A stretch of DNA of 40,212 nucleotides from an uncultured Bacilli bacterium (GTDB lineage: Bacteria; Bacillota_I; Bacilli_A; RF39; UBA660), in the NCBI GenBank assembly GCA_947624045.1, contig CANQIL010000011.1, positions 1-40,212 on the forward strand, in the 5' to 3' direction. Position numbers and translations under genes: made by a program. The notes beneath the pieces are model-generated. The model worked only from the letters and a program-made list of their open reading frames with translations. It ran no database searches and was not told the origin of the DNA. This document shows positions 4,301-24,449 of the stretch, in pieces. Each line of letters opens with the position of its first letter. Within the stretch, counting starts at the first letter, position 1.

Positions 4301-4605
4301 TTCTTAGCTAAATCATCATAGAACTCTAAAGCTATATAAGAAGTAACATCTTGAGCTCGTAAATATTCTTTGTTACTTAAACTTAATTTACCTCTTACAT
4401 AGGATTCTAATGTTCTTTTGGTAACATCACCAGCAGCTTGATTAAATTTAGCTTTGCCTCCTGTTAAGACATATTGGATAGCATCTAATAAAGTTGATTT
4501 ACCACTTCCGTTGATACCTGTTAGTAAAGTGTTGTTTTTAATTGCAAATGTTTGATTATAAAAAGTATGCCAATTAATCAATTTTATCTTCGTTATTTTC
4601 TTCAT
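1384..4605 (-). CDS. jetC: Wadjet protein JetC (SMC/MukB-like ATPase)
   Basis: JetC is the SMC-type motor of the Wadjet complex, a MukB-like dimer driving ATP-dependent loop extrusion. Numbered from the ATG at 4605, the Walker A motif GINGSGKST is at about residues 30-38. A long coiled coil with a central hinge-like globular part follows (around 430-620). The C-terminal head has the ABC signature KSGGE near 967 and the Walker B FDEAFNNMD near 1003. I chose 4605 because AAAGGTGATAGTT precedes it at normal distance and MKKITKIKLINWHTF matches the family start. The reading frame is open to 4644, but those extra codons lie inside jetB. Its start overlaps jetB by 32 nt and its end overlaps jetD. 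At 1073 aa it is full length with all catalytic motifs. Confidence 0.95.
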   Translation of the reverse strand: MKKITKIKLINWHTFYNQTFAIKNNTLLTGINGSGKSTLLDAIQYVLTGGKAKFNQAAGDVTKRTLESYVRGKLSLSNKEYLRAQDVTSYIALEFYDDLAKKYDVIGAIIQIPSTSNLTRGFFRIAKCQLTDSLFIEDNIPISMNRFKRKENVEYFDTTSEISKMLSSFLGIPHQKYSELLTKALAFKPISNINDFVNTFLLSEDNISLENLQQNIEQFRNLQELIANEEAKIAELEKLEDLNNNYLKTEEDISKNNYFLKKLSLTKITKELEEISFKLNKNTNEENLLKEKLENINNDISNLNVMISKYETRLLEHEEYRLLEDWKEKEKETTETVKALKKDLNNLNDYIKMAQKNLKDYSWSSKLTKLDVYTTDFTQIKDTITDIYHQATIAKNDIDEKLYNTNTNLKKLKLKLTEIENNLSLLKAKKFPFPNSGITLLQTEIASYLKDKYKKDIEIRPLCEYLEITDEKWRNAIEGYLNTQKFDLIIEPKYFDEALNIYESIKKDKKISGVGLVNIAKIREKVSKNDNSNDNLSNYVTSSNIYAKDYAFYLLNRVTCCLDVNDLKKYENAITPTCMTYRNHTARQINPEAYKYYYIGEDALNQQIKMYEADKATTSKSYNESVERYNKLDLSQNNLKNIDFDYIFKSLPQIQKYIDSTNELETIKKRRESLNVDNLFTNVIEEKKKLEEEKSLKTKAFNEVNESLISIRATNQTLSNDMKNLQLEHDEYKDSLKSYTDYEEDFKNLLANKDITKLEKSLKEDSNFLNNSYIELKTKIENFQEGYNSKYQLDEITSIDNVDYYLQELYRMREKDLKKYKSKSIEFEEQCQKSFHEDFISKLKNKIYYAEEELKNLNKALKNSYFGKDKYEFIYTSSNDPELAKYYKIITSGKDYQINTLFEEHLSLEEQDTMDELFEKITSSTSLDTMNKVVSEYTDYRRYMSYDIKITNENDETYYFSKVSKEKSGGEIQTPFYVIIAASFEQLLRSSKKDSSVGCFVMFDEAFNNMDESRIEAMMNFYNSLNIQLMIAVPPNRIATIIPYVNTNLLIFKDNNISYAKTVTLDEIAFNEE

Positions 4606-5212
4606 AACTATCACCTTTTTCTTGATAAGAATTAATTTTATCATTTAACTGTTTTATATTACTTACTTCTACGACATATTGAATTGTAGGAAAAATTTCA
4701 ATTAAAGTGTCATCTTTTTGAAAATTAGTACCTTTGAAATTTATAATATTATACTTTTTAAATAAAGTAAGACCGGTTGTTAAATCAATTGTTTTAAATC
4801 TTTGTAAGTTATCAAAATTAAATTGTTCACATTTACTTTGAAGTTCACCAATAGAAGTAATAACTTTGTTTTCTAAAGATATATCGTGTAATTTTTGATG
4901 ATATAGTAATCTTAATATTAATAGTAAAAGACTATTATTTTTATTAAGAGATAACTTTTTAGTATATTCAGATGTTAGAACTAAAGTTTTTTGTAGACTA
5001 TAATGAGTTAGCTCTCTTGCACTAAGTAGAAAATAATTTTTAAAAACAGTAAAGTGCGTAACGATAAAATAGTAGTCTTTCTTGTCTTCTTCCTTACTAG
5101 CAGTTAAATAATTAACATTTATTAATTTGTTGGTAAGATAAGCAAAAGTTTCTTGGTCTTTATCTGATAATTTTTGGTATTCTTCAGTAAATATGGTAAG
5201 GGCTTCATTCAT
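4574..5212 (-). CDS. jetB: Wadjet protein JetB (MukE-like subunit)
   Basis: This 212-aa protein sits between jetA and jetC and overlaps both, which is the JetB position in Wadjet operons. JetB is a MukE-like winged-helix protein that joins the JetA kleisin to the JetC heads. The visible content fits: a helical, acidic protein with an aromatic-rich core (YYFIVTHFTVFKNYFLLSARE near residues 45-65) and no catalytic motifs. Its ATG overlaps the jetA stop codon in an ATGAATGA arrangement, indicating translational coupling. The assignment rests mainly on gene order, size and neighbours, because this subunit diverges fast. Confidence 0.88.
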   Translation of the reverse strand: MNEALTIFTEEYQKLSDKDQETFAYLTNKLINVNYLTASKEEDKKDYYFIVTHFTVFKNYFLLSARELTHYSLQKTLVLTSEYTKKLSLNKNNSLLLLILRLLYHQKLHDISLENKVITSIGELQSKCEQFNFDNLQRFKTIDLTTGLTLFKKYNIINFKGTNFQKDDTLIEIFPTIQYVVEVSNIKQLNDKINSYQEKGDSYEENNEDKID

Positions 5213-6581
5213 TTTTCTTTTTCCTTTCTATTATAAATGATGGGATATGAATATTATCAATTACTTCTTCAGTATCTTGCCATAGGACTTGATAGTCACA
5301 AGTTGTTTCTTTAGAATAAATTAAGGCTAGGAGAACTTTGATAAATTCACTTTTTTGCTTGATATTAAAATCTTTTATTGTTAAGTTTTGCTTGGTACTT
5401 AGCATAGTCATAATTTGCTTATTTATTTCTTTTTTAGAATGCTTTAGGTTTGTTGCTAACTGGTGGTAAAAGGCTTTTTCAATGGTAGTATTGGAATTAG
5501 TGGTACTTTCTATAGGCAATTCAGAAAAGACGATACTTGTTCTTGGCGTGTAAAGTGATGTTTTTATGATGTTTCTTGCATCAAATAATTTAAAAGTCAT
5601 ATCATTTTCTTCAAGTAATGAGAAGTTTTTTAAAATATTTATTAAGTATCCTTCAACGTTAGCATTATGATTCATAAGCATTTTGATTCTTTCTATCGCA
5701 ACAGTGATATATCGACTATTTTTGATATCTATTTCTTCCATAATTGTAATGATGCGGTCAAAAATGCCTTCTAAGAAATGCATAGATTCATAAAATTTTT
5801 CAGTAGCGGCTGTTTCAGCAATGTTGTCTTCTTTTACAATTTGCTCAATGATAGATGATTTGTATACAGTATTTTCTTTGATATTTGCACAGATATTATT
5901 AAAAGGAATTTTATACTTATGGGGGTTATCATTAGTTTTCATATAATAATAAGCATCATCAATAATCTTTTCTTTGTATTCACCAAGTAATTGAGATAGT
6001 ATTTCTTCTAATTGTTCTTCTTCTGTTGCGTTTTCTAAATTAGTAATACGTTTAATATATTTCTTTATATTAGAGTTTAGACTTCTTAATTTTTTAAGTA
6101 AATCATTAGCTTGATTTATAGTGTCTTGAATAGTGAAGTAACCTCTTTTTATTTCTAATCTTTCTAAGTTATGATAAATTCTATAGACATAGCTACTTAG
6201 TTCTAAATTGCGACTTTCACCAAAGTTGTAGTAAGTATCTAAAAAGGAAATGGCATAGTCTTCAAAATTTACATATAGTTGCTGGTTTTTACCATATTCT
6301 GTATCTATCCAACCACATTGTTTTAATTTTCGGAAAATAAAATTAGCTTTGTCATTGGAATCTTTAAGTTCTATATCCTCATCATTATCAATTTCTGCGT
6401 TTATATTTTGTTCTAGATAATCGTTAATTAAATTAATAAAGTCTTCTTTTAAAAAAGTGTAACTGTTACTTTCAGATGATTTTGAGTAAATGAAAAATAA
6501 AATATCGGCATACGTCTGTCTTGATGGTGATGATAAAAGTGAAAAGAATTTGGCTGGAATGATATCAAATAAATGAAACAT
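5205..6581 (-). CDS. jetA: Wadjet protein JetA (MukF-like kleisin)
   Basis: First gene of the operon. JetA is the kleisin subunit that bridges the two JetC heads. The N-terminus MFHLFDIIPAKFFSLLSSPS followed by RQTYADILFFIY is the typical JetA opening. It is followed by winged-helix-like and long helical segments with several acidic stretches (for example residues 60-72). The 458-aa length is normal. It ends in TGA, showing that TGA is a stop in this organism, and overlaps jetB by 8 nt. The promoter immediately upstream has consensus elements and an inverted repeat over its -10 (see separate entry). Confidence 0.92.
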   Translation of the reverse strand: MFHLFDIIPAKFFSLLSSPSRQTYADILFFIYSKSSESNSYTFLKEDFINLINDYLEQNINAEIDNDEDIELKDSNDKANFIFRKLKQCGWIDTEYGKNQQLYVNFEDYAISFLDTYYNFGESRNLELSSYVYRIYHNLERLEIKRGYFTIQDTINQANDLLKKLRSLNSNIKKYIKRITNLENATEEEQLEEILSQLLGEYKEKIIDDAYYYMKTNDNPHKYKIPFNNICANIKENTVYKSSIIEQIVKEDNIAETAATEKFYESMHFLEGIFDRIITIMEEIDIKNSRYITVAIERIKMLMNHNANVEGYLINILKNFSLLEENDMTFKLFDARNIIKTSLYTPRTSIVFSELPIESTTNSNTTIEKAFYHQLATNLKHSKKEINKQIMTMLSTKQNLTIKDFNIKQKSEFIKVLLALIYSKETTCDYQVLWQDTEEVIDNIHIPSFIIERKKKNE

Positions 6582-6601
6582 ACTGAGCCCCCTTTTTAGT
6601 T

Positions 6602-6641
6602 AATTGTGCCCTATTATAGCACAATTGTTTTATTTTTACAA
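6602..6641 (-). promoter_or_regulatory. Wadjet operon promoter with palindromic operator over the -10
   Basis: On the minus strand there is TTGTAA (6641-6636), a 17-nt spacer and TATAAT (6618-6613), preceded by TGTGC. A perfect inverted repeat AATTGTGC/GCACAATT occupies 6602-6609 and 6619-6626. Its two 8-bp arms flank the -10, with one arm in the spacer and one at the start of the transcript. A protein bound there would block RNA polymerase. The promoter is well supported; operator function is inference. Confidence 0.75.
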
Positions 6642-6651
6642 TATAGAGGCT

Positions 6652-6688
6652 AACAAAAAAAGAATCCGGATAGTTCCATAGATTCTTA
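6652..6688 (-). terminator. Rho-independent terminator of the coiled-coil gene
   Basis: On the minus strand AAGAATC pairs with GATTCTT around a 14-nt loop, followed by TTTTTTT. The stop codon (6688-6686) lies in the left arm. It isolates the Wadjet promoter from upstream transcription. Confidence 0.8.
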
Positions 6689-7639
6689 TTTATTTTCATT
6701 TTGATTATTTTGACCTAAAATTTTAACGCCACCATTAGCTTCAACTGTTTTGGTTGCTAATTCTTTTAGTTCAATATATGCTTTATCCATTTTTTCTTGC
6801 AAGCTAGTATTTAGTGCACTGGCTTTACTTAACTCTTCTTGTAGGGATGCAATTTTATCATTTTGTCTATCAATAGTATTTTGAAAATCTTTCTTTAATA
6901 GCTCAGTATTATATTTATACTCTTTTTCTAACTCAGAAGTAGCTTCTTTTTTACCACGTTCATATTCTTTATTTATTAAGTTAGGTATATCATTTACTTT
7001 CTTTTCTAAATCTTCAAGATATTTAGCTTTATCTTTAGCTTCAGCTAATAATTTTTTAGTTTCTTCCTCAGTCTGCTTTAGGGCTAATTCACGAGACTTT
7101 TTCTCATCTTCCCAAGCGTTGTTGGCAAGTTCACGTTCTCTTTTGATTTTATAATCATATTCTTCAGTTTCTCTTTTTCTCTCAGTCTTTAGGCTTTCGC
7201 TTTTTAGTTCAAATTCTTTAACTAAATCATTAGTCTTTTTAGTGTACTCAGCTTCTAAAGCTTTTAAGTTTTCTTCTATTTTAGCTGATTCATTCTTTTT
7301 ATGATTTTCTAAGTCAATTAAAAAGTCTTTGCCAGTATTGATAACTAAAGTTAAATTATTTAGTTCTTTTTCAACACCATATAAATTTTGTAATTTTTCC
7401 TCTTCTGCACTAATAGCAATTTCTAAATCTTTAAATTTATTAACTAATTCTTGAGAAAAAATATTTTGTTCAACATTTTTCTTAGTTTCAGTTACAGATT
7501 TTTCAACTTGCTTTGCTTTAGCTTCTTCAATAGGATTTGATTTAACTTTAGCGGCATTTTTCTCTCTTAATAGGGCTTCATTTAAGGCATCTAAAATTTC
7601 TTGTTTAGTGTTTTTTAGTGTAATTTCTTCTTTTTTCAT
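6686..7639 (-). CDS. Hypothetical cytosolic coiled-coil protein
   Basis: A 317-aa protein with no signal peptide or membrane segment. Residues 55-300 are almost pure charged coiled coil, rich in Lys, Glu, Leu and Ala with continuous heptads. The ends are short and less regular; the C-terminus is Asn/Gln-rich. The start has a good ribosome binding site (AAAGGAG). It has its own promoter and terminator, so it is not part of the Wadjet operon, although it lies directly upstream of it. Function is not recognisable: it could be a structural filament, a scaffold or a DNA-associated coil. No phage-tail or SMC head motifs are visible. Confidence 0.75.
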   Translation of the reverse strand: MKKEEITLKNTKQEILDALNEALLREKNAAKVKSNPIEEAKAKQVEKSVTETKKNVEQNIFSQELVNKFKDLEIAISAEEEKLQNLYGVEKELNNLTLVINTGKDFLIDLENHKKNESAKIEENLKALEAEYTKKTNDLVKEFELKSESLKTERKRETEEYDYKIKRERELANNAWEDEKKSRELALKQTEEETKKLLAEAKDKAKYLEDLEKKVNDIPNLINKEYERGKKEATSELEKEYKYNTELLKKDFQNTIDRQNDKIASLQEELSKASALNTSLQEKMDKAYIELKELATKTVEANGGVKILGQNNQNENK

Positions 7640-7674
7640 AAGTGTACTACTCCTTTAATAATTTAATTAATTTT

Positions 7675-7703
7675 ATTGTAGCACACTATTCTTGGTAAGC
7701 AAA
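7675..7703 (-). promoter_or_regulatory. Promoter of the coiled-coil gene
   Basis: On the minus strand TTTGCT (7703-7698), a 17-nt spacer and TACAAT (7680-7675) occur about 40 nt before the ATG. The sequence before the -10 (TGTGC) matches that of the Wadjet promoter. Confidence 0.55.
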
Positions 7704-7718
7704 TAATTTTTTTCGCGT

Positions 7719-8201
7719 TTAGCCTCTTTTTAGTCTTAAATGATATTTAATTGTTTCAGCGGATGAGATGTATTTATCTACAAAGCAAACTAAAAAGGAC
7801 TCTTTATATTTAGGAATGCTTCGTAATGTTAAAGGCCACATATGTTTTAAAATTATATCTTTTTCTTTTGGTGATAAGGAAAAATATTTTAGGGCATCAT
7901 CTAGAGCTTTTTTAGGATGAGTATAGCCATGTTTTTCTAATAAGCGAGTTGCTTTATAGGCTTTATGCCAGTCATAAAGAAAAAAATCATGTAAAAGAGC
8001 AGCTCTTGCTACTGCTTTGTAATCAAGGTGCATTTTCTTAGCAAATTTATAACTTTTATAAGATACATCTAGGCAATGCTTTAAGCACGTTGTATTGCCG
8101 TGTTGAATAAACTCATTCATTTTTAAAACAATGGCATTATCAACTAAATCTTCTATTATTCTATAATACTCTTCATCAATATTCTTATATTTTTCAAGCA
8201 T
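7719..8201 (-). CDS. HD-domain metal-dependent phosphohydrolase
   Basis: A 160-aa single-domain protein. It contains the HD-superfamily pattern: a His near residue 42 (KHCLDVSYKSYKFAKK), the paired metal ligands AALLHDFFLYDW (His-Asp about residues 71-72), and a later His in IILKHMWPLT. HD proteins hydrolyse phosphoester or nucleotide substrates; the substrate here cannot be told from sequence. The length equals one HD domain with no partner domain. It lies downstream of corA on the same strand with a 33-nt gap and may be co-transcribed. No (p)ppGpp synthetase or HD-GYP motifs are seen. Confidence 0.85.
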   Translation of the reverse strand: MLEKYKNIDEEYYRIIEDLVDNAIVLKMNEFIQHGNTTCLKHCLDVSYKSYKFAKKMHLDYKAVARAALLHDFFLYDWHKAYKATRLLEKHGYTHPKKALDDALKYFSLSPKEKDIILKHMWPLTLRSIPKYKESFLVCFVDKYISSAETIKYHLRLKRG

Positions 8202-8234
8202 AATTATCCCTCTTTATCATTATATTCTTACTCA

Positions 8235-9179
8235 TTATAACATATTTTTTTTATGAAGAATTAAAGCAATTAATAATGATATGACAAATGAAGCAACAAT
8301 TAAAATTGAAAAAGCATTTTCATTTGTACTAATAGAGCCTAAAGGAACATTCATTCCTAAGAATGAAGATATCATAGTAGGAATAGATAGTACGATAGTA
8401 GCTCCAGCTAAAAACTTCATAATTAAATTAAGATTATTTGAAACAATAGTGGCATAAGTATCAGTAATTGATGATAAAATATCTTTATAAATAGTACTCA
8501 TTTCAAAAGCCTGCTTATTTTCAATAATAGCATCTTCTAAAAGGTCAGCATCATTATCAAACAAAGGTAAGATTATTCCCTTAGATAATTTTTCTAAGAC
8601 TAAATCATTGGCTTTTAAGGAAGTAATGAAATAAACTAAGGTTTTTTCTATTTCTAAAAGGTCTATTAAGTCTTTATTTTCTGTTGATTTTTTTAGGACT
8701 TTTTCCTTTTCTTCAATATCTTTGTTTACATTTTTTAAAGCTCTTAAATAATAACTTGATGTATTAATTAAAATTTGAATTAAAAACCGTGTTTTTTTGG
8801 CAGTACGAAAGTCTTTTATTTTACCTTGCTTAAAGGCATCAAGAATATTTGTTTTTTTAGGAGATACGGTAATAACGTAATTATTTTTAGTAATAATTAT
8901 TCCTAATGGATAGGTTTTATATTTATGGTCATCGTCTTTTTCTTTTAAATAAGGAGTATCTATAACTACTAAAGTAGCATTTTGGCTTTGTTCAATACGA
9001 GGTAATTCTTCATCATCAAGCATTTTTAAAATAAGGTCTTCATCAATTTGCGTTTTTTCTATTACTTTAGCTATTTCATCTTTAGTAGGTGTAATTAAGT
9101 CTATCCAACAGTCTGTTGTTATTTTTTTGCATTTTTTGATTTTCTTTTCAACTGGAGTAGTTTTATAAATTTTTAGCGT
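8235..9179 (-). CDS. corA: CorA-family magnesium transport protein with non-AUG start
   Basis: CorA forms a pentameric Mg2+ channel in the cytoplasmic membrane. The C-terminus has two membrane helices with the selectivity motif GMN between them (FLGMNVP), followed by a short Lys-rich tail. The first in-frame ATG (9023) would give only 262 aa and delete part of the conserved cytosolic domain. Upstream the frame stays open and encodes LKIYKTTPVEKK ... WIDLITPTKDEIAKV, classic CorA N-terminal sequence. There is no ATG, GTG or TTG between the upstream stop and this segment. The best start is ACG at 9179, three bases after GGTGAT; ATT at 9182 is the alternative. That gives about 314 aa, the normal family length. 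Family assignment is firm, the start codon less so. Confidence 0.9.
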   Translation of the reverse strand, partial: TLKIYKTTPVEKKIKKCKKITTDCWIDLITPTKDEIAKVIEKTQIDEDLILKMLDDEELPRIEQSQNATLVVIDTPYLKEKDDDHKYKTYPLGIIITKNNYVITVSPKKTNILDAFKQGKIKDFRTAKKTRFLIQILINTSSYYLRALKNVNKDIEEKEKVLKKSTENKDLIDLLEIEKTLVYFITSLKANDLVLEKLSKGIILPLFDNDADLLEDAIIENKQAFEMSTIYKDILSSITDTYATIVSNNLNLIMKFLAGATIVLSIPTMISSFLGMNVPLGSISTNENAFSILIVASFVISLLIALILHKKNML

Positions 9180-9207
9180 AATATCACCATCCCTTTTTCA
9201 ATGCTAT

Positions 9208-9236
9208 ATTGTACCATTTATTGGGTTAAATTTAAA
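9208..9236 (-). promoter_or_regulatory. corA promoter
   Basis: On the minus strand TTTAAA (9236-9231), a 17-nt spacer and TACAAT (9213-9208) with an extended TG. The 5' leader is only about 25 nt, too short for an M-box type Mg2+ riboswitch. Confidence 0.55.
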
Positions 9237-9253
9237 GAGAAAGTTTACTTTAC

Positions 9254-9285
9254 GTTAAAAAAGCACTCAATTTAGTTAAGTGCTC
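9254..9285 (-). terminator. Rho-independent terminator
   Basis: On the minus strand AGCACT and AGTGCT pair around an 11-nt loop, followed by TTTTTT. It ends the transcript of the 284-aa membrane-anchored protein gene. Confidence 0.8.
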
Positions 9286-9305
9286 TTAATTATATTATAT
9301 AAAAA

Positions 9306-10160
9306 TTAGTTTTTGAAATAATTTCCAGTAGCATATAAAATTTGCCCTAAGTCATAAAAACTATTGTCATTATTAAAACCAAGAATAGTTATGGAACTAC
9401 CTACTGTATTTGGAGCAGTTTCTTCTGCCATTAAGAATTTTATAACATGAGAGACATTTGGTAATTTTCCATAGGAATTTACGTTGTTCGTTTTAATGGC
9501 ATCTTCGATAGGCATATATTCAACTGTACCATCGCTCATTAGAAATAGCAATGTCTCAGCACCGGCTGATTGACCAAATCCACTAATAAAAATATCTTCA
9601 ACAGTGTTAGACATTACAATTGTGTAGTTATTATCATGAGCACGAAATTTTATTGTTTTTTTGTCAGTGTTTAATTTGGCATAAGCATTTATAGTATTAC
9701 TATTAGATGTAACTAAAGTGTAAATTGAATTTTCATCATTAAGGCAACCATTAGAGTTAAACTCAGTCAAATAGTCTGGTCCAACAACTCCTCCTTGACC
9801 TCCTGATGGAGTTGCTTGTACTCCTCCAAGTCCTGAAGTAGCACTAGAAGAATTATCAGTTGTATTAGAATTATTCGTACTACTATTATTAGAACTTTCA
9901 TTTGAATTGCTATTTGATTGATTATTAGTATTTGTATTATTTTCTTTTTCTACAACGGTAGAATTATTTTTATTTGTTTCTTTGTTGTTATTGGAAAATA
10001 CATTATTTTGTTCTAAGACTATATATAAAGTTAAACCTAGTATGGCTATTATTAAAACACCTATTGTTATAAAATATTTTTTGTCATCATTTCTTTTTCT
10101 ATGTACATTTTCTCTTTCTGCACTTTTTCTTATTTCTTCATCTTTTTCATATTCTTTCAT
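9306..10160 (-). CDS. Membrane-anchored Asn/Ser-rich extracellular protein, unknown function
   Basis: An N-terminal charged cytosolic tail of about 28 residues is followed by one hydrophobic helix (YFITIGVLIIAILGLTLYIV). Next is a 70-residue low-complexity Asn/Ser/Thr linker and a Gly-rich hinge. The roughly 150-residue C-terminal domain includes a beta-rich SDGTVEYMPIEDAI segment. Topology is type II, with the C-terminal domain outside. The ATG at 10160 is preceded by AGGAG at seven bases; an in-frame GTG two codons earlier lies too close to that site. The C-terminal domain contains one Cys and no catalytic pattern I recognise. It lies just downstream of an HtrA-like protease gene but has its own promoter-like sequence. 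The SDG/EY motif suggests a beta-propeller-like or ligand-binding fold, which is weak inference. Confidence 0.8.
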   Translation of the reverse strand: MKEYEKDEEIRKSAERENVHRKRNDDKKYFITIGVLIIAILGLTLYIVLEQNNVFSNNNKETNKNNSTVVEKENNTNTNNQSNSNSNESSNNSSTNNSNTTDNSSSATSGLGGVQATPSGGQGGVVGPDYLTEFNSNGCLNDENSIYTLVTSNSNTINAYAKLNTDKKTIKFRAHDNNYTIVMSNTVEDIFISGFGQSAGAETLLFLMSDGTVEYMPIEDAIKTNNVNSYGKLPNVSHVIKFLMAEETAPNTVGSSITILGFNNDNSFYDLGQILYATGNYFKN

Positions 10161-10209
10161 ACACACTCTCCTCTTTATTTTAGTTTAGCATGTTAAAATG
10201 TAAAGATAA

Positions 10210-10245
10210 AGAAAAAATGTAAACCTATTAATCAATTTACATTTT
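10210..10245 (-). terminator. Rho-independent terminator of the abi-htrA operon
   Basis: On the minus strand AAATGTAAA pairs with TTTACATTT (9 bp) around a 12-nt loop and runs into a T-rich end. Confidence 0.8.
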
Positions 10246-10280
10246 TATTTACAATTGTTTTTTCCTATATTTGACACATT

Positions 10281-11408
10281 TTAATCAGAACTTTTACCTA
10301 AAGTAACTTTTGTTTTATGCTCTTTGCCATCTCTTATATAAGTAACTTCTATTTTATCACCAGCTTGATATTGATATAGTTCATAACGTAGATAAGCTAT
10401 ATCTTTTACTTTAGCATCATTTAATTTAATAATTACATCACCTTTTTGTAAATCTGAATTAGCGGCAGCTGAATCTTTTTCACATTCAACTATTACTACT
10501 CCTTCAGTAACATCTTTATCAAGCATAATTTGATTTCTATATAGGCTCATTGTATCAGTTGTATTTAACATACTAATACCTAGAACAGGCCATTCAATTT
10601 TTTTGCCATTTTCTAAAGATTCTACATGACTCATGGCATATTCAATTGGAATAGCAAAGCCCATTCCTTCAATTTGTGAATCAACTAATTTCATAGAGCA
10701 AATGCCAATTACTTCGCCATTGATATTTAGAAGTGGTCCACCACTATTTCCTGGGTTAATAGAGGCATCTAGTTGTAAAACACGCATTACCCAGTCATTG
10801 TTAGAAGAGTTACCTACACTAACACTTACCATTCGGTCTTTACCAGATAGGACACCTGATGTTACACTACCACGATAGTCATAGCCCATTGGAGAACCTA
10901 CTGTGAAAACAGTATCACCTAAACTCATCTTTTCACTGTTACCAATATTCGCAACCATTTTTATTTTATCTTTTGAAACTCTTAGAACGGCTAAATCAAG
11001 ATATTCATCACTACCTAAAGTTTCAGCTTCTATTTCTTCATCAGAAGAATTAACAACTTTTATTTCTTTACTATCTGATACAACGTGTTGATTTGTTAAA
11101 ATATAGCCATATTCATTATCTACTTTATAAACAAAGCCACTACCAGTTGATGCTAGTTCATCATTATTATAAACTTGAACAACTACGACAGCATCATATA
11201 TTTTGTCAATTGCGGCCTTTAAAGACGTTTTTTCATAAACTTGTGTTTCATTCTTAGTAATAACAGTATTATTACTACTTCCTATAACCTCATTAATAAT
11301 AGGTGTCCACTTTAGAATAGAAAACATTACTACTCCACCTATTACAAAAGAAAAAATTACTAAAAAAACTAATTTAACATTTTCATTACTACTTTTATTT
11401 TTAGACAT
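10281..11408 (-). CDS. HtrA/DegP-like membrane-anchored serine protease (trypsin + PDZ)
   Basis: An S1C serine protease that would act on misfolded or specific proteins at the outer face of the membrane. One N-terminal membrane helix (about residues 11-33) is followed by a linker and a trypsin-like domain. The triad is complete: His108 in LTNQHVV, Asp138 in YLDLAVL and Ser222 in NPGNSGGPL. A single PDZ domain lies around residues 285-370. The length of 375 aa is typical for Gram-positive HtrA. Its ATG overlaps the last 8 nt of the upstream Abi_2 gene, so the two are translationally coupled, an unusual pairing. A strong terminator follows. Confidence 0.93.
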   Translation of the reverse strand: MSKNKSSNENVKLVFLVIFSFVIGGVVMFSILKWTPIINEVIGSSNNTVITKNETQVYEKTSLKAAIDKIYDAVVVVQVYNNDELASTGSGFVYKVDNEYGYILTNQHVVSDSKEIKVVNSSDEEIEAETLGSDEYLDLAVLRVSKDKIKMVANIGNSEKMSLGDTVFTVGSPMGYDYRGSVTSGVLSGKDRMVSVSVGNSSNNDWVMRVLQLDASINPGNSGGPLLNINGEVIGICSMKLVDSQIEGMGFAIPIEYAMSHVESLENGKKIEWPVLGISMLNTTDTMSLYRNQIMLDKDVTEGVVIVECEKDSAAANSDLQKGDVIIKLNDAKVKDIAYLRYELYQYQAGDKIEVTYIRDGKEHKTKVTLGKSSD

Positions 11409-12351
11409 TTAACTTGCTCCTTTCAATTTTTCTAATATCTTCCCAATTAAGAGGGAAGCCCATCTTCTCTAGTACTTTATCAATACTTATAGTTTTTAAA
11501 TTATAGTTTAGTGTTTCAATACAATTATCAATTTCTAAACACATATTCTTAAAATCCTCTTGAATAAGCATTTGCTTTAAAATAATTATCAAAGCAAATA
11601 CATCATTCTTACCATAAATATATTCATCATCTTCCTTCGGTATTTTTAATAAACTATGAAAAACGGTGTCATTGATGTATTTTTGGGTTTTATTTTCATA
11701 TAAAATATCTTCATGAGCACACAGATTTCGGTAGTTAGCGAGGATTGGTAGATAGTTCATTAGAATATTAGACTCAATTCCATAGATGTCAGCTATTTCT
11801 TTTTGGTCTTCTGGTTTTAAAACAGAATACAGTTCACTTACTATTCCAAAAGATAAGACTTTTACTAATATCCATAATGGTATATATCCATAATTAGAAA
11901 CATAATGTAGTGTAGCTGAGTGTTGGGAACAATTTACTCTTATTTGTCTTTTCATTTTCTTTAATAAATCATTTAGTTGAGCTTGCTTATCAGGCTTTCT
12001 AGTAAAGTTTTTAGGTTTTAGGTAATCACTTTCCTTATAACCATACTTTTTAGATAACTGATAAGATGTAATAGATTTTAAATTATTCTCAATAACAAGC
12101 AAATACTTAAATAAAATATTTCTAAATGAACGGTCAAATAAAAATAAACTATATAACTCTTCAAAAGTAGTGCCTTCTTTAAAAGTTTTATCTTCAGATG
12201 AGTTCATGAAAAGATGACGGTAACCATTTAAAAAGAAATAGTTTTCGCGAAGTAAAACTTCTTTAACATAAGCTTCATCATGAATAGTCATACCTTTTTG
12301 TTTTAAAATTTTTACTTGCTCGTCTAAAGTCTTGAAGTTTTTTTCTATCAT
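11401..12351 (-). CDS. Abi_2 / AbiD-AbiF family abortive-infection HEPN protein
   Basis: The 316-aa sequence has the Abi_2 layout. It opens with a segment about repeated YLNGYRHLF-like sequence (residues 38-48), followed by the FLFDRSFRNILFKYLLVIENNLK helix. It ends with the HEPN RNase motif Rx4H: Arg208 and His213 in YRNLCAHEDILY. Family members act as abortive-infection or RNA-cleaving anti-phage proteins. It overlaps the HtrA-like gene and heads that operon. An extended -10 promoter lies close upstream, leaving no room for the ncRNA sometimes found with abiF genes. Domain assignment is good; a defence role is inferred from family knowledge and from the nearby Wadjet operon. Confidence 0.9.
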   Translation of the reverse strand: MIEKNFKTLDEQVKILKQKGMTIHDEAYVKEVLLRENYFFLNGYRHLFMNSSEDKTFKEGTTFEELYSLFLFDRSFRNILFKYLLVIENNLKSITSYQLSKKYGYKESDYLKPKNFTRKPDKQAQLNDLLKKMKRQIRVNCSQHSATLHYVSNYGYIPLWILVKVLSFGIVSELYSVLKPEDQKEIADIYGIESNILMNYLPILANYRNLCAHEDILYENKTQKYINDTVFHSLLKIPKEDDEYIYGKNDVFALIIILKQMLIQEDFKNMCLEIDNCIETLNYNLKTISIDKVLEKMGFPLNWEDIRKIERSKLNV

Positions 12352-16581: not shown

Positions 16582-19500
16582 CTATTCGTTAGCAAGTAAT
16601 TTAATTACATAAGCTTTGCCTTTTAAAATAATATAACCAAAATTAGCAGGTATTTCTTGACGTAGTAATCGAGATTGAGTTGTTACTTTTAAAGTAAACT
16701 GATTACTTATACCATTACCTATCCAAATACCTTCAGATAAATCAACGTTGGCTTTAAACCAATCTTCATACATTAGACTCTTAATATTATCAATAGTATC
16801 TATAAGAATAAATTTAATGTTTGCTTGCGTACTATCTTTTAAAACAGTTAATAACTTATCTTTTCTATCACCATCTATTTTAGATAATAGGGAGTTTATA
16901 CCGATAAGCAGACAAATAAGAGTATTTTCTGAACTTGCTTCTTTTTCTTTTTCATAGTAAGCAGTTAATTTATCTATTGAAGTTGTACAGTTATCGGCTT
17001 GATAAAGAACTTTATTAGAAGAAACATCATCATCTATTACACTATTACTATCCATAACAATACATCTAGTATTTGGTACTTGGGTAATGACATTGATGAT
17101 GCCTTTTATAAAGTTTGGCTCTGTAGAAATATCATCACCAGTGATAGTGTACATTCTTCTATTTTCTAGACTGATTCTTGCGACTTCTAGAGTTTCTTTA
17201 GTTATACCTACAGGGATAGTTTCTAGTGAGCCTAAGAAATCTCTAACTGAATCAAAGTTAACTATTTCTGGTAAAATTGGGATACGTTTAGCTTTAAAAT
17301 CACAGATATTATTTAATTTTTGACTAATTACTTTAATATAATCAATCATTTTTTCTTCAGTATATGGATAAGCTGTTTGGAATTCATAAATATTATCTAG
17401 AGAAATTAAACCACGACCAAATACTTTAGATGGCTCTTTCTTTCTAACACCAGCTAGAATAGAACTATAATCAGATGAGTCATTAAATTGTAAAACAACA
17501 TTTTGTTTAAAATTCTGACGAAGACGATATCTAACAGTATTAGTTCCATTAGTACTAAATATGAAGACAACACCATATTTTAAGCATTCTCTTGTTAGTT
17601 GATTCATTAATTCTTCATAATCAGGATATGTTTCTAAGAAAGCTTCAACATTGTTGATAACTATAACAATTAAAGGAATTTGTTTGCCTCCATGATTAAT
17701 ATAAAAATCATAAGAACCATTATAATCAACAAATAATTTCTTTCTATCTTCAATTATTAACTGAATCATTTTAAATAAATTATTAATTTTTTCAGCTTCT
17801 GTTGATAAGATAACTTCGCCAACATGAGGAGCATTTTTAAACATAGTTAGTGTTTCAGCACCAAAATCTAAAACATAAAAGTTAACTTCTTTAGAATCAT
17901 GCGTAGTAATACATGAATAGATAATACTAGTAAGCATTAGTTCTTTGCCACTACCGGTAGAGCCATAGATAATAGTATTTCCATCTTGAGATAGAGGTAG
18001 TGTTAGGACATTTTGCTTTTGATTATCAGGGTCATCATATTCACCTATGATAGGATTAATAACATTTTTAGTAGTTGCATAGTGATATTTTTCTTTAATA
18101 CTATCAACATATATTACATCAGGTATTCTATCTAGCCATAATTTAGGAATAGCTATTTGTTCAGTTTTAGCTTCATCAACAATATATTTAATTATGCTAG
18201 TTATTTCTTCACCTTTAGATTCCACTACTACTTCATTTTGTTTAGTATCAAGTGTTTTTATGAAGTTGCCGACATTATCAATAATATTAATTGATTGGTC
18301 TATTTTCTTTTTTCTCTTTTCAGTTGGATAATACTGAGCTCCAGCCCAAGCTGCTTGACCTAAAGCGAATAGTTCATTGTAACCTACTTGTAAGTAAAAA
18401 CGACCAGGATTTTTTAAAGAAGCAGCATCGGGTACTTTTATCATATCCATACTATCAGATTTATCTTGAACTTTTAAGCAGACTCTAAACTTTGAGTTAG
18501 ACCATATTTGGTCATTGACAACGCCACTTGGCTTTTGGGTTGCTAAAATAAGATGGACACCTAAAGAACGACCGATACGTGCTGTTGATATTAGTTGGTC
18601 CATAAATTCAGGACGTTGGTCTTTTAATTCGGCAAACTCATCAGAAATGATAAATAAATGCGAAATGGGCTTGTCAACTAGGCCTTTTCTATAAAGACTT
18701 TGGTATTTATAAATATCAATGGTACTTTCATCTAGTTTATCTCTAGCTTCGTTAAACATTCTTTGTCTTTTTCTTAATTCACTTTGAATAGAAGCTAGGG
18801 ACCTATTCATTTCAACAGTATCTAGGTTGGTAATAGTACCAGCTAGATGAGGTAATTTCATACCGGTTTCTTTATTTTCAAAAACACCAGCTAGGCCACC
18901 ACCTTTGTAGTCAATTAATACAAAAGATACTTCGTAAGGGTGGTAATTTAAAGCCATTGATAGGACATAAGTAATAATAAATTCAGACTTACCAGAACCT
19001 GTCATACCTGCTATTAAGCCATGAGGACCATGGGCTTTTTCATGCAAGTCTAGTTTGAATAATTCTCTAGATTTATCAACACCAACAGGAGCTTGCAATG
19101 ACTTAGTTGGGTCATTTTGTTTCCAACGATTTAAAATATTTAATTGGTCGACCATACCAACATTATACATTTCTAGAAAACTTAATCCTTGAGGTAGTGT
19201 TCTAGTTTCTTTGGCTATATCAATTGGAATATTTGCAAGTATTTTGCAACATTCATAAATATTTAAAGTTGGGTCAAAATCGGCCATAAACTCTTTTTGC
19301 TTGTTGGATACAAGTTCATTTTCAAAGACTCCTGATACTTTGTCGCCAATACTTATAAATGTTTTACACTCATTTGGAATATTAACTAATCTTGGACTTA
19401 CGACGATTAAACTAAAACTATAATTAGCACCTGACTCACAAATATCTTTTAAAATGTCTAAATCTCTTAAAGATTTGTAGTCGTCAGTAAAAATAACGTA

Positions 19501-21159
19501 ATAAGGTTTTAAGTGATGATAGTCAGTGTTGTTAACTTCCATTTTACCATTTACTTCTTTAAATTTACGAGCTTGAAATTCTTTTTCTAAGATTAGGGAT
19601 ATTTCTTTAGCTTCATCTAAGTTAGTAGCAAAGTATCTGGTTTGTTTATCATTACTCCAACAATGAGGAGCTATTTTTAAATATTCCCAATTTTGGGCAT
19701 TTTGCTCGTTAGTTAGAATAACTATTTTTAAATCTTCGTAACTATGAAAGGTTAGCATTTGTAGAATTAGGCCTTCAATGAATTGTTTTTTATTTTTAGC
19801 GGTACCTATGATAGCTGAGATGTTATTTTTAGCAAAGGAAATAGAGATAGGAACATTTTCTAAAGTTCTTGATTCAGCTCCTAATTTGTAGACTTCTTGT
19901 AAAAGATTATCATCTTCAAGAGAGAAATGTTCTTCAGGGAATGATATTTTACCTTGTAGTTCAGTTGAGCCGACACCTAATCTTAAATCGAGAAAGTCAT
20001 CTTGTTCTAGTTCTCTTTCCCATAAATTTCTTTTACGATTATAAATTATTTCCTTAGTAGCACTTAAGGGAAGATAATTATCGATTAGAATCTGACGTTG
20101 AATTTTCATTTCGGCTTGAATTTTTTGACGTTTTGATTCAATATATTCTAAGTATTTGGTTTGACGAAGTTGTTCTTTTTCTTTTCTTTGCTTCTTTTGA
20201 AAACGTTTTTGTAAAACGGGCCATAAAAGCATAGTCATCATCATAGCTCCAGCCATTACTAGTGATGGTAAAGCTTGAGATAAATCAGTTGAGCCATCAA
20301 TGACACCAGATAAAGCATTATAACCCATCATCATAGACATCATAGCCATTGTTAACATAGGTCCTAAGGTATAAATTAGAGGGGTTTTGTCTTCTTGCTC
20401 TTTGGCAGGTGGTGAATCTATGGTGATTAAAGCATCTTCTATTTTTGTTTTAAAACGAGGAGATTTGTAAAAATAATCTTCTTCATTAAAAAATTCAATA
20501 CCCTCTTCATCAGGGTTATCTTGAACGACTTGCTTTTGAATGACAGGAGGCATTACTTCAAAAAGGCTATTGTCAAAACGAACTAAATTGCCAATGTTAT
20601 TAATTATAAGCGAATCTTTCATAACAATAATACGAAGACCCATAATAAAAATAATATCACCATATTCTAGGGCACTAGCAGTGGTTGCTAGATTGTTGAC
20701 ATAAGTTCCATATTTACTATTTAAATCTTGAATTACCCACTTGCCTTTACCATAAATTAATCTAGCATGTTGTTTAGAAACAAGTGGATATGTATAAGCA
20801 ATGTTTGTCTTATTATCGTTACCGATAATTATTTCGCCCTCTCTTTTTAGACGAAGCTTTAAACTGTTGGTATCATTAGAGGGAGAACAATATAAGATTA
20901 CGTATTCATTGTCCGTATTAATTTTTAAGAAATAAAGACTATAATCTTTTAAAATAGCTGATTCTATTTCTTTATCGCCAGCCATTATCTTAGTTTCAAA
21001 GTCGCTTTTTATTTTCCATTCGCCGTTTTCTTCTTCGACATTAATTAAGTTACGAGAGTTGCCTAGATAATCATTGTCTGTTATCCAGTAGTTTCCAGCA
21101 ACTTTAGTTGGTAATTCAAAGTTATAAATTTTTCGTTTTTTGATTAGTCTGACTATCAC
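16582..21159 (-). CDS. essC: Type VIIb secretion ATPase EssC (FHA, transmembrane, FtsK/SpoIIIE domains)
   Basis: EssC is the membrane motor and substrate receptor of type VIIb secretion. The 1525-aa protein starts at a GTG behind GGGGTGAT. The N-terminal beta region contains an FHA domain at about 105-175 (IIIGNDNKTN, LVSKQHARL, DLNSKYGTYVNN). Two membrane helices follow near 261-281 and 297-315, then a degenerate ATPase-like domain. The first full FtsK/SpoIIIE domain has Walker A GMTGSGKS (718-725) and Walker B ISDEFAEL (838-845). The second has Walker A GSTGSGKE (1066-1073) with a weak Walker B (IPLIVIVINN, no acid pair). The C-terminal domain has lost its P-loop, as usual for EssC. It heads the operon with EsaB-like and two small proteins; EsaA, EssA and EssB are not in the window. 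Confidence 0.95.
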   Translation of the reverse strand: MIVRLIKKRKIYNFELPTKVAGNYWITDNDYLGNSRNLINVEEENGEWKIKSDFETKIMAGDKEIESAILKDYSLYFLKINTDNEYVILYCSPSNDTNSLKLRLKREGEIIIGNDNKTNIAYTYPLVSKQHARLIYGKGKWVIQDLNSKYGTYVNNLATTASALEYGDIIFIMGLRIIVMKDSLIINNIGNLVRFDNSLFEVMPPVIQKQVVQDNPDEEGIEFFNEEDYFYKSPRFKTKIEDALITIDSPPAKEQEDKTPLIYTLGPMLTMAMMSMMMGYNALSGVIDGSTDLSQALPSLVMAGAMMMTMLLWPVLQKRFQKKQRKEKEQLRQTKYLEYIESKRQKIQAEMKIQRQILIDNYLPLSATKEIIYNRKRNLWERELEQDDFLDLRLGVGSTELQGKISFPEEHFSLEDDNLLQEVYKLGAESRTLENVPISISFAKNNISAIIGTAKNKKQFIEGLILQMLTFHSYEDLKIVILTNEQNAQNWEYLKIAPHCWSNDKQTRYFATNLDEAKEISLILEKEFQARKFKEVNGKMEVNNTDYHHLKPYYVIFTDDYKSLRDLDILKDICESGANYSFSLIVVSPRLVNIPNECKTFISIGDKVSGVFENELVSNKQKEFMADFDPTLNIYECCKILANIPIDIAKETRTLPQGLSFLEMYNVGMVDQLNILNRWKQNDPTKSLQAPVGVDKSRELFKLDLHEKAHGPHGLIAGMTGSGKSEFIITYVLSMALNYHPYEVSFVLIDYKGGGLAGVFENKETGMKLPHLAGTITNLDTVEMNRSLASIQSELRKRQRMFNEARDKLDESTIDIYKYQSLYRKGLVDKPISHLFIISDEFAELKDQRPEFMDQLISTARIGRSLGVHLILATQKPSGVVNDQIWSNSKFRVCLKVQDKSDSMDMIKVPDAASLKNPGRFYLQVGYNELFALGQAAWAGAQYYPTEKRKKKIDQSINIIDNVGNFIKTLDTKQNEVVVESKGEEITSIIKYIVDEAKTEQIAIPKLWLDRIPDVIYVDSIKEKYHYATTKNVINPIIGEYDDPDNQKQNVLTLPLSQDGNTIIYGSTGSGKELMLTSIIYSCITTHDSKEVNFYVLDFGAETLTMFKNAPHVGEVILSTEAEKINNLFKMIQLIIEDRKKLFVDYNGSYDFYINHGGKQIPLIVIVINNVEAFLETYPDYEELMNQLTRECLKYGVVFIFSTNGTNTVRYRLRQNFKQNVVLQFNDSSDYSSILAGVRKKEPSKVFGRGLISLDNIYEFQTAYPYTEEKMIDYIKVISQKLNNICDFKAKRIPILPEIVNFDSVRDFLGSLETIPVGITKETLEVARISLENRRMYTITGDDISTEPNFIKGIINVITQVPNTRCIVMDSNSVIDDDVSSNKVLYQADNCTTSIDKLTAYYEKEKEASSENTLICLLIGINSLLSKIDGDRKDKLLTVLKDSTQANIKFILIDTIDNIKSLMYEDWFKANVDLSEGIWIGNGISNQFTLKVTTQSRLLRQEIPANFGYIILKGKAYVIKLLANE

Positions 21160-22153: not shown

Positions 22154-22873
22154 TTATTTTTTTAAGAATAGTTGTTCATCTTTTTTTAAATAGATACCGT
22201 ATAGGTCCGTTTTAGGACAGGTGAAAATAAGTTGTGGTTTAGTTTCTTCAAAGGGCTTTTCATCATCTTTTTCTTGAGGTGCTGTTGTTATTTCTGCAGG
22301 AGGTTCTTCTTTAGGTTCTTTAGGAGTTTCTTCTTTAGGAGGCTCTTCTTCTAATACTTCTACTTCTATTTTTTTGAAATTATAATTGTAATTGTTTAGT
22401 ATCGTTATTTCATCGTTTATCCAAAGACAGTCTTCTGGTTTTTTGCCATTATTTATTGACCAGTTACCTAAGTTATTTTTGAACCAACCAGAACCTGTAA
22501 ATTTTCCTTGAGCACATTCAATATGACAATGATTGCCGTTAGCTTCGCCTTTAGTTCCCTCAGAGTAAAAAACTTCATTCTGTATAATTTTTTTGCCTAC
22601 AAATAGGTTACTTACATCGTTGGCGTGGGCAAAAAGAATAGTCATGTAGTCAATTGTTCCATCAGGATATTGTACTTTGTCTACGCTTTCTAGCCATACT
22701 TCATTGGCATCGTTTTGATATATTTTTTTGATAATGCCAGTAAAGGGAGCATAAATAGGACTAATAGATGTATCTTTTCCAGCTTCATCGATAGCAAAAC
22801 TATCTTGATGAGAGCCTTCATTGTAACCTTGAGTAATACGCATTACCTTGCTAGGATAAAGAGGTTTTTCCAT
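22154..22873 (-). CDS. M23-family peptidase, phage-type endolysin
   Basis: A LytM/M23-like peptidoglycan endopeptidase without a signal peptide, as in phage endolysins that rely on a holin. Zinc ligands fit the M23 pattern: His22 and Asp29 (SHQDSFAID), and the HxH motif His115-Cys-His117 (GNHCHIECAQG). The catalytic domain is about 1-165. It is followed by a Pro/Glu-rich linker (about 172-215) and a short C-terminal segment (QLIFTCPKTDLYGIYLKKDEQ) that may be a wall-binding or SH3-like stub. Its ATG overlaps the holin stop codon (TAATG). The gene pair forms a lysis cassette without other phage genes nearby. Confidence 0.85.
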   Translation of the reverse strand: MEKPLYPSKVMRITQGYNEGSHQDSFAIDEAGKDTSISPIYAPFTGIIKKIYQNDANEVWLESVDKVQYPDGTIDYMTILFAHANDVSNLFVGKKIIQNEVFYSEGTKGEANGNHCHIECAQGKFTGSGWFKNNLGNWSINNGKKPEDCLWINDEITILNNYNYNFKKIEVEVLEEEPPKEETPKEPKEEPPAEITTAPQEKDDEKPFEETKPQLIFTCPKTDLYGIYLKKDEQLFLKK

Positions 22874-23211
22874 TATTCTTCCTCCTTATTTATAATATTC
22901 TCTTCAGAAATTGTTACTCCTTTTTTAGTAACTATGTCTGTAAATGATGCGAGTTTGCCTTCTAATGTCTTGTAAATCGTATCTGCTCCAAGAAAAGAAA
23001 ATAGACCTACCCATAGACTAGCGGGAAAAGTAATGTCGGTAAAAGTTACGCAGAATAGAAAGCCAATTATTAGATTAACTAAAAAAGAATATAGTGTGAT
23101 AAATTTGCTCTTTTTAAAGTGTTTTTTAGTTTTTTGAATAAATGTACAAGTTATAGGACTAAGGGCAATTGAAATGATTAGTATTTTTTGTAAATAGTCT
23201 AAATTTAACAT
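22873..23211 (-). CDS. Phage-type holin
   Basis: A 112-aa protein with three hydrophobic segments (about 8-26, 37-57 and 66-80), basic loops (KTKKHFKKSK) and a charged hydrophilic C-terminus ending EEE. LWVGLFSFLGADTIYKTLEGK resembles the end of small Firmicutes phage holins. Holins permeabilise the membrane to release the endolysin encoded immediately downstream. It has an AGGAGGG ribosome binding site and a promoter with TTGTTT and TATATT at 17-nt spacing. The cassette may be a prophage remnant, a domesticated lysis or secretion device, or a phage-derived system used with toxins. Confidence 0.8.
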   Translation of the reverse strand: MLNLDYLQKILIISIALSPITCTFIQKTKKHFKKSKFITLYSFLVNLIIGFLFCVTFTDITFPASLWVGLFSFLGADTIYKTLEGKLASFTDIVTKKGVTISEENIINKEEE

Positions 23212-23258: not shown

Positions 23259-23305
23259 TTAATTCAACTAGAAAAGGAAAAGTTTTTTAGTAGAAAGCTT
23301 AATAA

Positions 23306-23336
23306 ATAAAAAAAGCATAAACCATTAAGCTTATGA
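23306..23336 (-). terminator. Rho-independent terminator after the small RNA
   Basis: On the minus strand CATAA (23335-23331) pairs with TTATG (23320-23316) around a loop, followed by C and TTTTTTT. The hairpin is near-identical in sequence to the one after rpsI (24,400-24,432). Confidence 0.6.
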
Positions 23337-23390
23337 AGTAGTTTATAAATAAATAAAACAGAGGGTAATTAGCCACTCTGTAATTTTTTA

Positions 23391-23490
23391 GTGTTATTTG
23401 CCTTGGTGCGACGCTATTACATAGCGCTTACCAAATGATAATGTAAATTCAATAAATTTACGGCGCATATCAAGGACTTACTGATAACAC
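23391..23490 (-). ncRNA. Putative stand-alone structured small RNA (cloverleaf-like, unnamed)
   Basis: On the minus strand a transcript beginning near 23490 folds with nested perfect helices. P1 is GTGTTAT/ATAACAC (23490-23484 with 23397-23391). P2 is CCTTG/CAAGG (23475-23471 with 23405-23401). P3 is TGCG/CGCA (23467-23464 with 23410-23407). P3 closes three hairpins, each separated by a single base: GTAAATT-TATTG-AATTTAC, TTATC-ATTT-GGTAA and CGCTAT-GTA-ATAGCG. A further hairpin ACAGAG/CTCTGT (23381-23358) and a terminator follow. A perfect sigma-A promoter lies at the right distance upstream. No open reading frame explains the region. It adjoins a DUF3800 gene; several published RNA motifs are named after DUF3800 genes, but I cannot say whether this is one of them. 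Confidence 0.75.
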
Positions 23491-23494
23491 TATT

Positions 23495-23523
23495 ATTATA
23501 ATATGCAATTTTTCAAATGTCAA
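23495..23523 (-). promoter_or_regulatory. Perfect consensus sigma-A promoter of the small RNA
   Basis: On the minus strand TTGACA (23523-23518), exactly 17 nt, then TATAAT (23500-23495). The predicted start at 23490-23488 coincides with the 5' strand of helix P1. Confidence 0.85.
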
Positions 23524-23528
23524 TACAT

Positions 23529-23572
23529 GTTGAGCCCATATTTTGTCGTTGTTAAGCCCATATTTTGTCGTT
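23529..23572. repeat. 22-bp tandem direct repeat upstream of the small RNA promoter
   Basis: Two abutting 22-bp copies (23529-23550 and 23551-23572) differ at one position (G/A). The core reads AGCCCATATTTTGTCGTT on plus. They lie just upstream of the -35 of the small RNA promoter. The 22-bp period is about two helical turns, so two proteins would bind on the same face. Confidence 0.9.
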
Positions 23573-23588
23573 AGTTTTAACTATTTAG

Positions 23589-24294
23589 TCATTGTATTGG
23601 AAAGAAAAATTCTCCTGCTAGATATTTTTCACTTTTCATTTTATTAATTTCATTAGAAAAGCAATTGTTTGCAATTAAATTTGTATAGTATATATTAGAA
23701 AACACATCTGCTATTTGTATTAATTCTCTAGTTTCAGATTGGCAATATTCAACATGAAATTTTTCTTGTATATGATTTCCTGTAACTAATTCGGTATTTA
23801 AATATTCTCTTAGAGTTGACCTTGTTTCAGTTTTAACATTTCTTTCGTCAATATATAGATAGTTTTCTTTGACAGATATTTGTTTATACTTAGTAAAATG
23901 TTCAATACTCAATTTTAAAAGATAATTAAAAGCTCTTGCGGTATTATTATAAAAATAATCTTTGACTTTCTTATTGTCACATACTATATAATATATTTCA
24001 AATAGTTCATTTTGACAAAAAAAGTTAATGAATTTTCTTTTCATATTGGCAGTAAAACAACTACCTTTTAATTCTTTAAATTTCCCATTATCATAAAACA
24101 TCTTAGTATCTTTATCCATTTTTTTTTAAATCGTCAAAATTACTGCTTATAAATCTTTTAAAAGCTCTTTTTAATCTATCTTTATTTTTAGGCAGTATGA
24201 TACAGATGACAAAATATTTGTTTTTATAATAATTTAAATTTTTTTTAGTCATACTTCCAGATTCATCTATATAATATGTATTAATATTTATCAC
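23589..24294 (-). pseudogene. DUF3800-family protein gene split by a poly-A frameshift
   Basis: Two minus-strand frames together encode one DUF3800 (RNase H-fold-like) protein. The first (24294-24112) has the opening TYYIDESGS with the first conserved Asp and a hydrophobic strand. The second (from 24119 to 23589) has YIDERN and ends with the conserved IQIADVF segment. They meet at a run of nine A (GATTTAAAAAAAAATGG). Removing one A fuses them in frame as DLKKMDKDTK, giving about 233 aa. All three acidic sites are intact, so only the homopolymer breaks the gene. Possible explanations are real inactivation, phase variation or transcriptional slippage, or a sequencing error. The first frame begins at a GTG with awkward ribosome binding site spacing. 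DUF3800 function is not firmly known. Confidence 0.8.
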
Positions 24295-24399
24295 TCCCTG
24301 ATTAGTTAATAATATTATACCATGAATTGATAGATAAAATTTATAAATTAACTGCAGATTATGAGATAAATCTTAATGAATCTTATTTGTATTTAAACA

Positions 24400-24432
24400 T
24401 AAAAAAACCCATAAACTATTAAGCTTATGAGG
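24400..24432 (-). terminator. Rho-independent terminator of the rplM-rpsI operon
   Basis: On the minus strand CTCATAA pairs with the TTATGGG side (two G-T pairs) around a 9-nt loop, followed by seven or more T. Confidence 0.8.
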
Positions 24433-24449
24433 TATAAAAGAAACATATT

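What the first reader, a model, noticed from the sequence alone, without database searches (positions are those of the whole stretch)
23358..23572. Undescribed stand-alone structured RNA with perfect promoter and tandem activator-like repeats
A minus-strand TTGACA-17-TATAAT promoter starts transcription exactly at the 5' strand of a perfect 7-bp closing helix. Inside are two more nested helices that close a four-way, cloverleaf-like junction of three hairpins separated by single bases, then terminator hairpins. Just upstream of the -35 are two abutting 22-bp repeats (one mismatch). Nothing codes for protein here. The layout (regulated strong promoter, compact RNA, terminator, adjacent DUF3800 gene) looks like a functional sRNA unit, perhaps paired with DUF3800.
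Basis: partly seen in the sequence, partly recalled or inferred. Interest (0 to 1): 0.85.

Follow-up and report, generated by a model that had tools for sequence, protein, structure and literature searches.

The report
Mobile structured RNA paired with DUF3800
A small bacterial RNA of about 100-150 bases, with a shape that evolution has clearly preserved, sits next to a predicted nucleic-acid-cutting protein (DUF3800); the two travel between gut bacteria as a roughly 1.1 kb cassette that repeatedly turns up just after the same ribosomal-protein gene, which makes the unknown job of such RNAs easier to test.

Summary
The finding is real. The minus-strand RNA (23490-23391, terminator to ~23351) is a conserved structured RNA: 19 distinct homologous loci keep its four core helices (96.8% of base-pair cells paired; 15 of 22 pairs show changes on both sides), with a conserved sigma-70 promoter. 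It is not wholly undescribed. It shares its core with Rfam's DUF3800-I RNA (RF02969), but scores below that family's cut-off (24.5 versus 44.2 bits) and replaces the family's 5' hairpin with a closing helix and a conserved GUAAGUC. I treat it as a sister variant, not a member. All 7 intact DUF3800 genes of this clade with readable flanks carry the RNA just downstream; in the window the gene is frameshifted. The DUF3800-RNA cassette sits directly 3' of rpsI in ten lineages whose S9 proteins are mostly only 60-80% identical, so it is mobile; the site resembles a prophage attachment site. The 'activator' repeats are a window-only tandem duplication, and the four-way cloverleaf is a conserved three-way core plus a variable insertion. 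Most likely the RNA binds and controls the DUF3800 nuclease, perhaps as an antitoxin-like partner, because it outlives the gene in five loci. That last step is inferred.

The parts
23495..23523 (-). promoter TTGACA-17-TATAAT
   Evidence: read in sequence; conserved in relatives and, with the same 17-base spacing, in the divergent L152 and L153
23391..23490 (-). structured RNA core: P1 23490-23484/23397-23391, P2 CCTTG/CAAGG, P3 TGCG/CGCA, variable H1 insertion, H3 CGCTA-TGTAA-TAGCG
   Evidence: 19 homologues, 15 of 22 pairs with changes on both sides, 96.8% of cells paired
23351..23381 (-). intrinsic terminator ACAGAG...CTCTGT plus U-tract
   Evidence: sequence; fold; hairpin kept with altered letters in relatives
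23529..23572 (-). two abutting 22-bp repeats, one mismatch
   Evidence: present in the window only; relatives have a single diverged copy or none
23589..24294 (-). DUF3800 gene, interrupted: 24112-24294 (N-terminal part) and 23589-24119 (rest), frameshift at an A9 run
   Evidence: PF12686 on both pieces; intact 235-aa homologue in L002/L029
24450..24872 (-). rpsI (ribosomal protein S9), whose 3' end is the insertion site
   Evidence: PF00380; same neighbour in all ten close copies
24393..24434 (-). left copy of an imperfect direct repeat (rpsI terminator region; attL-like)
   Evidence: local alignment score 52 against a shuffle maximum of 38; similar to the DNA next to a prophage at rpsI in G017
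23299..23340 (-). right copy of the same repeat (attR-like)
   Evidence: beyond it the DNA matches the empty site of the same genus

Best explanation
A divergent DUF3800-I-type structured RNA is transcribed from its own strong promoter and ended by an intrinsic terminator. It works with the neighbouring DUF3800 protein, a predicted RNase-H-fold nuclease with an invariant D-E-D-D set. The pair is a roughly 1.1 kb cargo cassette that moves between Bacilli into an integrase-type attachment site at the 3' end of rpsI. Shown here: structure, linkage, horizontal transfer, and selection on the protein. Inferred: the RNA binds DUF3800 and controls it, most simply by holding the nuclease in check (antitoxin-like). 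In the window the RNA remains intact while the protein gene is frameshifted. My confidence is about 0.95 for a conserved structured RNA linked to DUF3800, 0.85 for mobility into the rpsI 3' end, 0.6 for direct RNA-protein partnership, and 0.35 for inhibition as the mode.
For: Covariation in 19 homologues, 0 of 500 shuffles reaching the observed values. Unbiased linkage: in a protein-based search, 7 of 7 intact clade genes with readable flanks have the RNA just downstream; L023 has it upstream; R2-found loci L162 and L166-L169 have DUF3800 directly upstream. Purifying selection: median dN/dS 0.077. Invariant D11, E75, D150, D197 and DES motif across 12 diverse DUF3800 proteins. In most pairs DUF3800 DNA is 82-93% identical where S9 proteins are 60-80% identical. 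Same rpsI site in ten copies. Direct repeats in L031 (about 75 bp) and the window. Empty sites in the genus. Tyrosine-integrase prophage at rpsI in G017 sharing flank DNA. RNA persists where DUF3800 is broken or absent: window, L161, L163, L164, L153.
Against: No transcript, binding, nuclease or toxicity data exist here. Many DUF3800 proteins lack this RNA, and of 31 DUF3800-I hits above cut-off only 13 lie within 500 nt of a DUF3800 detected by the Pfam model, so such RNAs may have a role of their own. The structure model of DUF3800 was too poor to use (mean pLDDT 51). Orphan RNAs might simply not have decayed yet. The A9 frameshift could be an assembly error.
Confidence: 0.55

Rival explanations
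1. RNA-guided nuclease: the RNA is a guide or scaffold (like omega or bridge RNA) that directs the DUF3800 RNase-H-fold nuclease to DNA, including the rpsI site (homing).
For: RNase-H fold of DUF3800 as published (PMC10910872); constant neighbour RNA; repeated insertion at one site.
Against: No guide-like segment: the RNA is nearly identical among copies at rpsI, and the only variable part (H1 insertion) varies within same-site copies. RNA matches to the rpsI tail are at chance level. Site choice is explained by an integrase-type site.
Confidence: 0.15
2. The RNA has its own job (for example a trans-acting regulator or decoy) and DUF3800 is a co-travelling defence or accessory gene.
For: Orphan RNAs; tandem array of five DUF3800-I RNAs far from any detected DUF3800 in G220; separate promoters.
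Against: In the clade every intact DUF3800 with readable flanks has the RNA adjacent, even where the side has changed.
Confidence: 0.25
3. The site-specific distribution is vertical inheritance with many losses, not mobility.
For: All rpsI-site copies examined lie in related genomes of uncultured Bacilli.
Against: DUF3800 DNA mostly 82-93% identical while S9 protein is mostly 60-80% identical in the same pairs; module absent from seven same-genus genomes.
Confidence: 0.05

Closest known systems
DUF3800-I RNA, Rfam RF02969
   Same: P2/P3, H1, unpaired UAA and H3 (UAAGCG...UGUAA...CG-C) in the same order; adjacency to DUF3800; reciprocal weak matches at the exact annotated positions, against one weak chance hit in an equal-sized control
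   Different: Below gathering score (24.5 in the window; best relative 33.0; cut-off 44.2); no 5' hairpin; has a P1 closing helix and invariant GUAAGUC and GGUAAG segments; usually downstream of the gene
Type III toxin-antitoxin systems (ToxIN-like)
   Same: Small structured RNA beside a nuclease on mobile DNA; RNA outlasting the nuclease would fit an antitoxin
   Different: Single RNA, not a tandem repeat array; DUF3800 is not a ToxN-type protein (own knowledge); RNA has its own promoter
Elements integrated at the rpsI 3' end (e.g. IMESag-rpsI, PMC5090054; prophage in G017)
   Same: Same integration site; flanking direct repeats in two copies
   Different: Only about 1.1 kb and no integrase or mobilisation gene in the cassette

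Membership tests
DUF3800-I RNA (RF02969) | score at or above Rfam gathering cut-off (44.2 bits) | tested here: not met
   24.5 bits in window; 21.9 for L021; best relative L167 33.0
DUF3800-I RNA (RF02969) | core P2-P3-H1-UAA-H3 with the TAAGCG/CGYC hairpin | tested here: met
   reciprocal hits on annotated positions
DUF3800-I RNA (RF02969) | 5' hairpin of the Rfam consensus | tested here: not met
   Rfam alignments leave it mostly unfilled or unpaired; replaced by P1 5' strand plus GUAAGUC
DUF3800-I RNA (RF02969) | genomic association with DUF3800 | tested here: met
Conserved structured RNA | covariation supporting the proposed helices in independent homologues | tested here: met
   15 of 22 pairs with changes on both sides, 0 of 500 shuffles
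Type III toxin-antitoxin | tandem RNA repeats upstream of the toxin | tested here: not met
   single copy, downstream
Type III toxin-antitoxin | RNA neutralises a toxic ribonuclease | not testable with these tools
   needs expression tests
RNA-guided nuclease (TnpB/IscB/IS110-like) | variable guide segment matching a target | tested here: not met
   no guide-like segment; chance-level match to the rpsI tail
DUF3800 protein (PF12686) | Pfam gathering score and conserved acidic residues | tested here: met
   window pieces 24.4 and 22.9 bits against 21; invariant D, E, D, D in relatives
Integrative element at rpsI | attL/attR direct repeats bounding the insert | tested here: inconclusive
   clear in L031, imperfect in window, not detected in six other copies or in degenerate L037
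Integrative element at rpsI | integrase gene in the element | tested here: not met
   host genes follow directly in window, L029, L030 and L035

The most novel reading that the evidence does not exclude
A new kind of minimal mobile addiction or defence cassette: one RNase-H-fold nuclease held in check by one compact three-way-junction RNA, spreading without its own integrase by using the rpsI attachment site of resident phages or integrative elements.
Probability: 0.25. Interest if true: 0.8.

Novelty: new variant of a known kind. Interest (0 to 1): 0.55.

Why it matters
DUF3800-associated RNAs were found by comparative genomics, and I found no function for them in the papers held. This clade gives a compact natural test case: a one-gene, one-RNA cassette with clean empty sites, a defined core structure, intact and gene-broken natural copies, and a plausible mode of transfer. 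It widens the DUF3800-I group beyond what the Rfam model detects, and it separates the constant RNA core from dispensable parts.

Tried and rejected
Phage and plasmid DNA searches gave only short AT-rich matches to the 3' flank. Viral-contig scans by protein and by RNA pattern gave nothing. PADLOC and NCBIfam: no match for DUF3800. No solved DUF3800 structure by sequence. AlphaFold model too poor (mean pLDDT 51), so no fold search was run. An RNA-guided homing idea was raised by the repeated rpsI site and dropped after the complementarity test and the attachment-site evidence. Activator-repeat idea rejected. tRNA/tmRNA: none. The window as a prophage: rejected, neighbours are ribosomal-protein genes, although a holin/endolysin-like pair sits beside the module and is a resident of empty sites too.

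Full report
Observation. All the sequence features described are present on the minus strand, and the fold is better than shuffles (z -2.4 to -2.8). Rfam at its own cut-offs finds nothing in the window, and there is no tRNA or tmRNA. The RNA occurs once in its genome.

Homologues. A first DNA search found one strong homologue in another genus (G028, 89% identical over promoter plus RNA); the 22-bp repeats are missing there. A protein search with that genome's intact DUF3800 found nine loci. The seven with an intact gene and readable downstream flank all have the RNA directly after DUF3800. Of the other two, L034 ends at a contig edge, and L037 is degenerate and lacks the RNA. A more distant copy (L023, G067) has the RNA upstream of its gene, with a wholly different but complementary P1. 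A covariance model then found homologues in two more families (G494 and G476), and its successor found 15 of 385 genomes of the order positive. After removing records of the same locus, 19 distinct loci are in hand.

Structure. On the 19-locus alignment (17 distinct rows), 96.8% of pair cells are standard pairs, 15 of 22 pairs have changes on both sides, and no shuffle of 500 reaches these values. Sliding partners by 1 to 3 columns drops pairing to 30-54%. That alignment was fitted to the structure, so some lean is expected; the sequence-only alignment A5, with L023 trimmed to its core, already showed five both-side changes. Invariant or nearly invariant unpaired stretches are GUAAGUC and GGUAAG.

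Relation to known RNA. The best Rfam match is DUF3800-I at 24.5 bits, below its cut-off of 44.2. Other members reach 27.8 and 33.0. Conversely, the covariance model R2 scanned over 30 DUF3800-I loci gives six weak hits, all exactly on the annotated RNA and strand, whereas an equal-sized control set gives one unrelated hit. The cores are therefore homologous or at least very alike, but a 5' hairpin that is part of the Rfam consensus is missing. I file it as a sister variant, not as a member.

Partner protein. DUF3800 is under strong purifying selection in this clade (median dN/dS 0.077). D11, E12, S13, E75, K77, D150, S187 and D197 are invariant in a diverse set. The RNase-H fold is published for DUF3800 from a predicted structure (PMC10910872); my own model was too weak to confirm it. 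In the window the gene is split by a frameshift at a run of nine A; whether this is biology or assembly is open.

Mobility. All ten close copies, including the window, follow rpsI directly. In most pairs DUF3800 DNA is 82-93% identical (lowest 78%), while the S9 proteins range from 59 to 90% and are mostly 60-80%, which points to transfer into one site. Seven same-genus genomes lack the module; in six of them rpsI is followed directly by the holin gene that flanks the module in the window. L031 carries a direct repeat of about 75 bp (rpsI tail plus terminator) on both sides, and the window an imperfect 42-bp one. In G017 a tyrosine-integrase prophage occupies this place, and the left flank of several module copies matches its attachment-side DNA above shuffled controls. 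The rpsI 3' end is a published integration site in other Firmicutes (PMC5090054). No integrase is present in the cassette, so it is cargo, a deletion derivative, or a satellite; I cannot tell which.

Function. Five of 19 loci keep an intact-looking RNA where DUF3800 is frameshifted (window), degenerate (L163), deleted (L161) or absent nearby (L164, L153), whereas no intact DUF3800 of the protein-based set lacks the RNA. This asymmetry is what an inhibitor RNA would leave, but the numbers are small and an independent RNA role would look similar. No guide-like variable segment and no complementarity to the site beyond chance were found.

Limits. The genomes holding the close copies are metagenome-derived drafts, adjacency across contig ends is unknown, the second model's seed includes 11 of the counted loci, and no expression data were available.

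Noticed in passing
window 22154-23211 (-): Holin-like and endolysin-like genes (PHROGs) lie next to rpsI and are conserved there in most genomes of the genus and in related genera, so they look like resident genes rather than part of the insert.
   Followed up: partly
window 16582-21159 (-): 1525-aa FtsK/SpoIIIE plus FHA protein, EssC-like, suggesting a type VII secretion locus.
   Followed up: no
L132 (G220), record 718426-719346: Five DUF3800-I RNAs in tandem within 1 kb; nearest DUF3800 found by the Pfam model is about 148 kb away.
   Followed up: partly
L106 (G100), 2029 onward: A DUF3800-I-type hairpin (CTAAGCGTATGTTAAGTACGT) about 100 nt after rpsI with no DUF3800 nearby: a second such RNA type at the same site.
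   Followed up: partly
L156 (G067), 248-11667: The divergent DUF3800 plus RNA pair sits beside two large serine recombinases and a type I restriction subunit.
   Followed up: partly
L145 (G006), after rpsI: Scar-like repeats GTAACCCACAAGTAGCCCAC at the empty rpsI site, resembling the prophage-side DNA of G017.
   Followed up: partly
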